The notes beneath the pieces were generated by a model. It was not told the DNA's origin. It saw only the letters and a program-made list of their open reading frames with translations, and made no database searches. A stretch of 26,042 bases of DNA from a virus: IMG/VR virus record IMGVR_UViG_3300027861_000179, positions 1-26,042 of that record, one strand, 5' to 3'. Of the stretch, positions 20,791 to 21,430 are shown one piece after another; within the stretch, counting starts at the first letter, position 1; every line of letters begins with the position of its first letter. A program made the translations under genes and the position numbers.

Positions 20791-21059
20791 AATGTAAGCC
20801 GAAAGGTTTATGTTTCATTTCCTCCTCGCCAACCACCATTCTCCGAAAACTCATGTGGTGGTTGGCACTTTGAGGAATATTCTACGCCTGATGATTCCGT
20901 AGGGATGAAATGCGAAAGTATAGCGTAGGCTCAATAGTTCATCTGTGATTGAGACAAGATCCTCCATTAGCACAAAGAGCATTCGAGTAGTGTTTTTCGT
21001 GCTAAGACTAGACAGGAGGGGTGTGGTATCTAGATACGAAGGTGAACACAATTTTATGT
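20791..21059 (+). ncRNA. Structured leader RNA of the tRNA operon
   Basis: No ORF, but dense perfect stems in order: TAAGCC-GAAA-GGTTTA (20795-20810, GNRA tetraloop); an 11-bp stem GCCAACCACCA/TGGTGGTTGGC (20828-20838/20856-20866); a hammerhead ribozyme (20870-20934); CTCAAT/ATTGAG (20930-20935/20948-20953), which competes with the ribozyme's outer stem I; CCTCC/GGAGG (20961-20965/21015-21019) around TTAGCAC/GTGCTAA (20967-20973/20999-21005); and the palindrome GTATCTAGATAC (21026-21037). It begins at the promoter and ends at tRNA-Leu. It resembles no RNA family I can name beyond the ribozyme. Confidence 0.7.
20870..20934 (+). ncRNA. Type I hammerhead self-cleaving ribozyme
   Basis: All core parts are present in the correct order. 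Stem I is CTACGC (20882-20887) with GCGTAG (20923-20928). CTGATGA (20888-20894) is the C3-A9 core. Stem II (20895-20906) has TCC/GGA with a GTAG loop and a U-U pair at 10.1-11.1. GAA (20907-20909) is G12-A14. Stem III is ATGC-GAAA-GTAT (20910-20921), including A15.1-U16.1. A20922 is position 17, giving an AUA cleavage triplet, with cleavage expected between 20922 and 20923. An outer stem I segment TTGAG/CTCAA (20870-20874/20930-20934) flanks an internal loop, as in natural type I hammerheads. The U-U pair at the base of stem II is the only unusual point. Confidence 0.85.
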
Positions 21060-21136
21060 GCGTCTGTAGCCGAATTGGCATAGGCATCTGGCTTAGACCC
21101 AGTAATTTGTAGGTTCGACTCCTACCAGGCGTACCA
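21060..21136 (+). tRNA. tRNA-Leu (anticodon UAG) with a short variable loop
   Basis: Acceptor GCGTCTG/CAGGCGT (two G-U pairs), T8-A9, a class II-like D-arm (GCC...GGC with GAATTGG), anticodon loop CTTAGAC (TAG), T-arm GTAGG-TTCGACT-CCTAC, A73 and encoded CCA. It should read CUA. The variable region is only about five bases, although bacterial tRNA-Leu normally has a long variable arm. The first anticodon-stem pair is T-T. Confidence 0.85.
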
Positions 21137-21146
21137 AATTTTATGT

Positions 21147-21222
21147 CAGCGTGTAAGTTAATCTGGTAGACACCTCCCCTTGGACGGGAGAAGTGAAGGT
21201 TCAAATCCTTCCTCGCTGACCA
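21147..21222 (+). tRNA. tRNA-Pro (anticodon UGG)
   Basis: Acceptor CAGCGTG/CTCGCTG (one T-T mismatch), a perfect anticodon stem CTCCC/GGGAG with loop CTTGGAC (TGG), T-arm GAAGG-TTCAAAT-CCTTC, A73 and encoded CCA. C1-G72 with A73 is the usual bacterial proline identity set. Reads CCA. The D-stem is weak. Confidence 0.88.
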
Positions 21223-21306
21223 TTTTAAAACAGAGCATAGTCGATTGAAAACTGTTTAGTCAAAAACCTATCGCCAATCCGATGAAAGGTCGGTACAATT
21301 TTATAT

Positions 21307-21381
21307 GCTAGATTAGCTCAGTGGTAGAGCATTTGATTTGTAATCAAACGGTCGTCAGTTCAACTCTGACATTTAGCTCCA
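21307..21381 (+). tRNA. tRNA-Thr (anticodon UGU)
   Basis: Acceptor GCTAGAT/ATTTAGC (one G-U), D-arm GCTC-AGTGGTA-GAGC, anticodon stem TTTGA/TCAAA with loop TTTGTAA (TGT), variable CGGTC, T-arm GTCAG-TTCAACT-CTGAC, T73 and encoded CCA. Reads ACA. The 84 bases before it (21223-21306) hold no tRNA, only short inverted repeats. Confidence 0.93.
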
Positions 21382-21390
21382 TTAAAATGC

Positions 21391-21430
21391 AAAAGCCCGT
21401 AACAGAACTTCTCCTCTGTTACGGGCTTTT
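21391..21430. terminator. Convergent intrinsic terminator after the tRNAs
   Basis: A perfect 16-bp stem (21391-21406 with 21415-21430) starting AAAAGCCCG and ending CGGGCTTTT, with an 8-base loop. U-runs are present on both strands, so it should stop the tRNA transcript and the opposing methyltransferase transcript. Confidence 0.93.

What the first reader, a model, noticed from the sequence alone, without database searches (positions are those of the whole stretch)
20870..20934. Type I hammerhead ribozyme in the leader of a phage tRNA transcript
Directly visible: stem I CTACGC/GCGTAG, core CTGATGA, a stem II hairpin, GAA, a stem III hairpin ATGC-GAAA-GTAT and an AUA cleavage triplet, joined in exactly the hammerhead order with no extra or missing core bases. 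An internal loop and outer TTGAG/CTCAA in stem I match the tertiary-contact layout of natural type I hammerheads. The placement is notable: between a promoter and three tRNAs, so cleavage at 20922/20923 would separate a ~130-base structured 5' RNA from the tRNA-bearing fragment, which would carry a 5'-hydroxyl end. The U-U pair at 10.1-11.1 may slow it.
Basis: partly seen in the sequence, partly recalled or inferred. Interest (0 to 1): 0.85.

Follow-up and report, generated by a model that had tools for sequence, protein, structure and literature searches.

The report
Hammerhead-processed phage noncoding RNA
A virus of bacteria carries a genuine, evolutionarily conserved self-cutting RNA motif (a hammerhead ribozyme) fused to a second, uncatalogued knotted RNA domain; the same pair occurs in at least six other phage sequences, so it looks like a self-trimming small RNA that in this genome happens to sit in front of tRNA genes.

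Summary
The hammerhead is real. Core and stems lie at 20882-20928 as described; a comparable match is expected about 2e-4 times per window. Rfam misses it, but also misses clear homologues. The rest is an uncatalogued domain with two pseudoknots. Across seven sequences 26 of 43 pairs change on both sides; covariation score 0.54 against at most 0.08 for slid controls. A model built without the window finds it at 144 bits. Homologue L233, found by the downstream domain alone, carries a complete hammerhead with different stems II and III. The U-U pair at 10.1-11.1 is a recurrent phage variant: 110 database stretches against ~1.5 expected, and reported active (PMC3088659). The 'tRNA leader' role is only partly supported: neighbouring genes differ everywhere, three homologues have a terminator close behind, and tRNA or tRNA-like elements follow in three of seven. 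Most likely the hammerhead sets the 5' end of a trans-acting phage RNA; cleavage is untested and the function of the body unknown.

The parts
20882..20928 (+). Type I hammerhead ribozyme (stems I-III and catalytic core)
   Evidence: All core bases present; chance about 2e-4 per window; stems covary in seven homologues
20882..20887 (+). Stem I 5' strand CTACGC (pairs with 20923-20928)
   Evidence: 100% paired in 7 of 7; C-G changed to A-U in two relatives
20888..20894 (+). Catalytic core CTGATGA (C3-A9)
   Evidence: Invariant in 7 of 7; imposed by retrieval patterns except in the window and L233
20895..20906 (+). Stem II hairpin TTCC-GTAG-GGAT with U-U at 10.1-11.1
   Evidence: G-C at 10.1-11.1 in five relatives, U-U also in L312; UUCC/GGAU form strongly enriched in viral contigs
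20907..20909 (+). Core GAA (G12-A14)
   Evidence: Invariant in 7 of 7
20910..20921 (+). Stem III hairpin ATGC-GAAA-GTAT, including A15.1-U16.1
   Evidence: Three of four pairs change on both sides among homologues; A15.1-U16.1 invariant
20922..20923 (+). Predicted cleavage site, after A17 (20922)
   Evidence: Position follows from hammerhead anatomy; H17 is A or C in homologues; cleavage not tested
20923..21047 (+). Predicted 3' product: ncRNA body with a 5'-OH end, double-pseudoknot domain
   Evidence: Covariance model built without the window hits 20882-21051 at 144 bits
20930..20953 (+). Helix A: CTCAAT 20930-20935 with ATTGAG 20948-20953
   Evidence: 100% paired, four pairs with double changes
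20937..20942 (+). Pseudoknot 5' strand GTTCAT, pairs with GTGAAC 21042-21047
   Evidence: All six pairs change on both sides, 100% paired
21042..21047 (+). Pseudoknot 3' strand GTGAAC
20960..21020 (+). Helix B: TCCTCC 20960-20965 with GGAGGG 21015-21020
   Evidence: Three pairs with double changes, 92% paired
20967..21005 (+). Helix C hairpin: TTAGCAC/GTGCTAA plus an inner AAGAGCATT/AGTGTTTTT stem
   Evidence: Covaries; inner stem resembles a hairpin in Kuravirus-type phages
21008..21033 (+). Helix D: CTAG 21008-21011 with CTAG 21030-21033, pseudoknotted with helix B
   Evidence: Three of four pairs with double changes
21033..21041 (+). Conserved segment GATACGAAG
   Evidence: Same in six of seven, GGTACGAAG in L312; used in the pattern that retrieved L209, L212 and L219
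21060..21136 (+). tRNA-Leu(UAG)
21147..21222 (+). tRNA-Pro(UGG)
21307..21381 (+). tRNA-Thr(UGU)
21391..21430 (+). Intrinsic terminator-like hairpin, probable end of the transcript

Best explanation
This is a phage noncoding RNA of about 170 nt made of two parts: a type I hammerhead ribozyme at the 5' end and a compact domain with two pseudoknots directly behind it. After transcription the hammerhead cuts the RNA after A20922. That removes a 5' fragment and leaves a body that starts at G20923 with a 5'-hydroxyl; the folded domain begins seven bases further on. The body is the functional product and acts in trans, since its neighbouring genes differ in every phage. In this genome tRNA-Leu, -Pro and -Thr share the transcript and would be released by ordinary tRNA processing. 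Shown: the motif, its conservation with compensatory changes, the linkage of the two domains, the varied gene contexts. Inferred: cleavage in vivo, a mature RNA starting at 20923, action in trans. Guess: the body binds a host or phage protein, for example as a decoy or inhibitor.
For: Hammerhead anatomy complete and unlikely by chance. Homologues L087, L209, L219, L212 (L222 a near-copy), L233, L312. 96.6% of cells paired, 26 of 43 pairs with double changes, score 0.54 against 0.165 shuffled and at most 0.08 slid; all eight helices, including both pseudoknots and hammerhead stems I-III, show compensatory change. Leave-one-out model: 144 bits, E 4e-41 on the window. L233 was retrieved by the downstream domain only and still has a complete hammerhead with unrelated stems II and III. 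One copy per phage record. Neighbouring genes differ in each phage. Terminators close behind the body in L219 and, read directly, in L087 and L312. A U-U pair at 10.1-11.1 supports more cleavage than any other mispair and occurs in natural hammerheads (PMC3088659).
Against: No cleavage data. Rfam hammerhead models do not score the window. Native flanks favour a competing fold in silico. There is no obvious conserved loop I-loop II contact, which fast natural hammerheads use. Stem I is nearly invariant, so it could be constrained for another reason. Five of six homologues were retrieved with patterns containing part of the hammerhead core, which biases core conservation. No confirmed promoter in the window. 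tRNA or tRNA-like elements follow in three of seven, so a tRNA-linked role is not excluded.
Confidence: 0.66

Rival explanations
1. tRNA-leader processing element: the hammerhead's job is to cut the 5' leader off a tRNA transcript so that the tRNAs mature or are made in a regulated amount.
For: In the window three tRNAs follow on the same strand before one terminator. L212 and L312 carry degenerate tRNA-like elements within about 160 nt downstream; no other acceptor-plus-T-arm match occurs in 189 kb (both strands counted) of these loci. Other phage type I hammerheads sit just upstream of tRNAs: L100, L160/L289.
Against: Four of seven homologues have no tRNA-like element within 400 nt, and L087, L219 and L312 have a terminator soon after the body. 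A 125-nt conserved folded domain stands between the cut and the first tRNA, which tRNA maturation would not need. Of 81 U-U hammerheads in viral contigs only two have a tRNA within 1.5 kb downstream.
Confidence: 0.15
2. The hammerhead fold is conserved but is not a working ribozyme: it serves as a structural 5' cap or protein-binding element of the ncRNA.
For: Stem I nearly invariant; native-flank folding disfavours the hammerhead; no clear tertiary contacts.
Against: Catalytic bases invariant in all seven, including L233 which was not selected for them, while stems II and III vary. Retaining exactly C3-A9, G12-A14, A15.1-U16.1 and a non-G H17 without need for catalysis is unlikely.
Confidence: 0.1
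3. The body is a ligand- or protein-sensing domain that controls the hammerhead or the downstream genes in cis (a natural aptazyme or tRNA-operon regulator).
For: Tight, near-constant spacing between ribozyme and body; highly conserved unpaired bases in the body (ACAA, AAG-C, TACGAAG); in the window an upstream TTGAG copy can compete with helix A for CTCAA.
Against: Downstream genes differ in every phage and are sometimes preceded by a terminator; the competing upstream segment is not conserved.
Confidence: 0.08
4. Chance resemblance to a hammerhead.
For: Rfam negative.
Against: Descriptor expectation 1.8e-4 per window and homologues with compensatory changes.
Confidence: 0.01

Closest known systems
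Hammerhead ribozyme, type I (Rfam RF00163)
   Same: Same core CUGAUGA...GAA, A15.1-U16.1, H17, three stems, open stem I. One homologue (L209) scores 34.1 bits against the gathering score 34.
   Different: U-U at 10.1-11.1; not found by the Rfam model; fused to a conserved downstream double-pseudoknot domain.
Natural hammerheads with a U10.1-U11.1 mispair (Perreault et al. 2011, PMC3088659) and the PaP3-like phage copies
   Same: Same UUCC/GGAU stem II in the Bruynoghevirus Pa223 copy, which I read as type III just before the first annotated gene. The paper reports a natural U-U stem II and says U-U supports more cleavage than other mispairs.
   Different: Those at hand are type III in mRNA leaders; this one is type I heading a noncoding RNA. 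Which core variant the paper assigns to PaP3 could not be read from the text held.
HDV-like theta ribozymes of gut phages (PMC10879173)
   Same: Self-cleaving ribozymes next to phage tRNAs.
   Different: Different ribozyme class; proposed there to trim tRNA 3' trailers, whereas this cut lies upstream of the tRNAs and of a separate RNA domain. The word hammerhead does not occur in that paper.
GOLLD and ROOL ornate RNAs
   Same: From general knowledge: structured phage-associated RNAs, often near tRNAs, of unknown function.
   Different: Several times larger; no Rfam match here to these or any other family.

Membership tests
Hammerhead ribozyme (type I) | Core C3 U4 G5 A6 N7 G8 A9, G12 A13 A14, A15.1-U16.1, H17 | tested here: met
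   invariant in seven homologues
Hammerhead ribozyme (type I) | Three helices around the core, stem I open, stems II and III closed by loops | tested here: met
   compensatory changes in all three stems
Hammerhead ribozyme (type I) | Standard pair at 10.1-11.1 (usual, not strictly defining) | tested here: not met
   U-U in the window and L312, G-C in five relatives. U-U is a natural variant (PMC3088659) and recurrent in phages, so this does not exclude membership
Hammerhead ribozyme (type I) | Match to Rfam RF00163 at its cut-off (a curator's threshold, not a defining trait) | tested here: not met
   Rfam also misses L312 and L233 and just catches L209, so the model's reach is the limit
Hammerhead ribozyme (type I) | Loop I-loop II tertiary contact | tested here: inconclusive
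   No conserved peripheral sequence upstream of stem I in alignment A1; a contact through the body cannot be excluded
Hammerhead ribozyme (type I) | Self-cleavage after H17 | not testable with these tools
   needs in vitro transcription or 5'-end mapping
tRNA-leader element | Conserved position immediately upstream of tRNA genes | tested here: inconclusive
   tRNAs in the window, tRNA-like elements in L212 and L312, none within 400 nt in four others
Known structured RNA family (Rfam 15) for the downstream domain | Match to any of 4227 models | tested here: not met

The most novel reading that the evidence does not exclude
A previously unrecognised class of phage noncoding RNA in which a hammerhead ribozyme is a fixed module that makes the mature 5' end of a trans-acting double-pseudoknot RNA, shared among otherwise different phages.
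Probability: 0.5. Interest if true: 0.78.

Novelty: new variant of a known kind. Interest (0 to 1): 0.64.

Why it matters
Hammerheads are common in phages, but what they do there is an open question. Here one is tied, across several otherwise different phages, to a single conserved partner domain with strong covariation. That gives a concrete hypothesis (5'-end maturation of a phage RNA) and a compact, testable object. It also shows that the U-U stem II form is a major natural variant that the standard Rfam search overlooks.

Tried and rejected
Close relatives of the phage itself: none found with the neighbouring 158-aa protein or the terminase. The methylase gave many relatives, but the two closest (L002, L003) have no tRNAs and no match to model R1. 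An over-specific pattern found nothing. The domain-only pattern in 84,980 bacterial and archaeal species genomes gave 15 stretches, none alignable, so no prophage copies of that exact pattern. No cultured phage holds the body and no plasmid matches L087; weak hits are to the hammerhead core, the helix C hairpin or unrelated stretches. Rejected: the outer TTGAG/CTCAA stem as a tertiary-contact layout, because CTCAAT belongs to covarying helix A. Considered from topology: an HDV-like fold for the body (the order of helix A and pseudoknot resembles P1/P2, and CGAAG resembles J4/2), dropped because there is no P3 and no Rfam match; a group I core (helices B/D resemble P3/P7), dropped because P4-P6 and P8 are absent. 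L160, L100 and L227 hammerheads match the ribozyme part of the model but not convincingly the body. Literature searches found no report of this RNA, but the library holds only open-licence papers; the metatranscriptome motifs of PMC10085705 could not be compared because their alignments are supplementary.

Full report
What is there. The window holds phage head genes (major head protein, protease, portal) on the minus strand and three tRNAs at 21060-21381 on the plus strand. Upstream of the tRNAs the sequence 20882-20928 reads, without a missing or extra core base, as a type I hammerhead. A descriptor with stem I of at least 6 pairs, stem II of at least 3 with a free 10.1-11.1, stem III of at least 4 with A15.1-U16.1, and a non-G H17 occurs once in 141 Mb of dinucleotide-matched random sequence, 1.8e-4 per window. 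Rfam finds no hammerhead, even at E up to 10 with only 321 bases, or with the type I model alone. The isolated element folds as a hammerhead (also with a few flanking bases); with the native 5' flank other folds win.

Homologues. A pattern search of viral contigs for a hammerhead core with a short stem III returned L087, whose hammerhead and the roughly 120 bases behind it align with the window (local score 133; highest of 200 shuffles 54). A second pattern combining core and GATACGAAG gave L209, L219, L212 and its near-copy L222. A third pattern using only the downstream domain gave L233 as the sole new alignable relative. L312 came from a stem II pattern. That makes seven distinct sequences including the window.

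Structure. On these seven (alignment A2) a hand-drawn structure with hammerhead stems I-III, helices A, B, C, D and the pseudoknot from the loop of A is 96.6% paired; 26 of 43 pairs have changes on both sides; covariation is 0.540 against 0.165 in shuffles (0 of 500 reach it) and 0.055-0.081 when partners are slid. Every helix has at least one double change; the six-pair pseudoknot has six of six. B and D form a second pseudoknot. The structure was drawn from these sequences, so the percentage paired leans towards it; the double changes and slide controls are the stronger evidence. Core conservation is partly imposed by the retrieval patterns for L087, L209, L212, L219 and L312. L233 is free of that bias and has an intact hammerhead with different stems II and III. 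A model built from the other six finds the window at 144 bits, E 4e-41, with nothing else in the window up to E 10.

The U-U pair. The pattern CTGATGATTCC-N3-6-GGATGAAA occurs in 110 viral stretches. From the roughly 20 unrelated hits the collection offers about 1e11 positions, so about 1.5 would be expected; this is an estimate. Of 81 occurrences in the 80 loci examined, 78 can form stems I and III of a hammerhead (61 type III, 17 type I by my loose criteria; some loci are near-duplicates). Most appear to lie just before genes. Perreault et al. (PMC3088659) report natural U10.1-U11.1 hammerheads and cite that this mispair supports more cleavage than any other. So the U-U pair does not count against the window.

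Context and function. Each phage record has one copy (antisense matches to the near-palindromic helix C hairpin aside). Neighbouring genes differ in each phage: tRNAs here; structural-type genes in L209; a gene read as tail-type in L087; one read as a polymerase in L233; small genes in L312. These names are my reading of the sequences, except for the window's genes. L219 has a terminator-like hairpin 35 bases after the body; L087 and L312 have ones visible by eye, which the scan did not list. These point to a standalone transcript rather than a leader of one gene. Against that, three of seven (window, L212, L312) have an acceptor plus T-arm within 400 bases downstream, and no other such element occurs in these loci; the elements in L212 and L312 are not called by ARAGORN. 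A tRNA link is therefore possible but not general.

Mechanism proposed. Transcription, folding of the hammerhead, cleavage after A20922, release of the 5' piece, folding of the body from its new 5'-OH end; in this genome tRNA processing then separates the tRNAs. The motif, its conservation and its linkage to the body are shown; cleavage and action in trans are inferred; binding a protein is a guess.

Known and new. The ribozyme is a new member of a known family. The partner domain has no Rfam match in any member, and I found no paper describing the pair, within an open-licence library. I rate the whole as a new variant of a known kind.

Noticed in passing
L227:1500-1550 (+), L358:4460-4507 (-): Klebsiella phage BaqKoxi and Escherichia phage PD205 (Gamaleyavirus) have a noncoding stretch of 1.3 kb or more with tRNAs nearby that contains a type I hammerhead, also with U-U at 10.1-11.1.
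   Followed up: partly
L160:3450-3480 (-), L289:5000-5050 (+): Type I U-U hammerhead upstream of a tRNA cluster (ten tRNAs plus tmRNA in L160), with an internal loop and outer stem in stem I.
   Followed up: partly
L228:1105-1170: Bruynoghevirus Pa223 has about 950 bases without annotated genes near its left end, ending in a U-U hammerhead (type III by my reading) just before the first annotated gene.
   Followed up: partly
L229:1503-1541, L230:1503-1541: Kuravirus-type phages carry a hairpin (AAGTGCATTTGCGAGTGTATTT) almost identical to the inner part of helix C, without a hammerhead.
   Followed up: no
L249-L327: Dozens of type III hammerheads with UUCC/GGAU stem II, most apparently just before phage genes, often with a similar stem I loop (GAUGUGU-like).
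   Followed up: partly
L198:781 and L198:1085: Two similar hammerheads in tandem 300 bases apart; the second is a weak match to RAGATH-1-hammerhead.
   Followed up: no
L233:6146-6211 (-): A type II hammerhead above the Rfam cut-off elsewhere in the same phage contig as a family member.
   Followed up: no
L212:1446-1517, L312:1259-1342: Degenerate tRNA-like elements (7-bp acceptor and T-arm) downstream of the RNA, not called by ARAGORN.
   Followed up: partly
window:20870-20953: CTCAA (20930-20934) can pair with TTGAG upstream (20870-20874) or downstream (20949-20953): a possible before/after-cleavage switch, seen in this genome only.
   Followed up: partly
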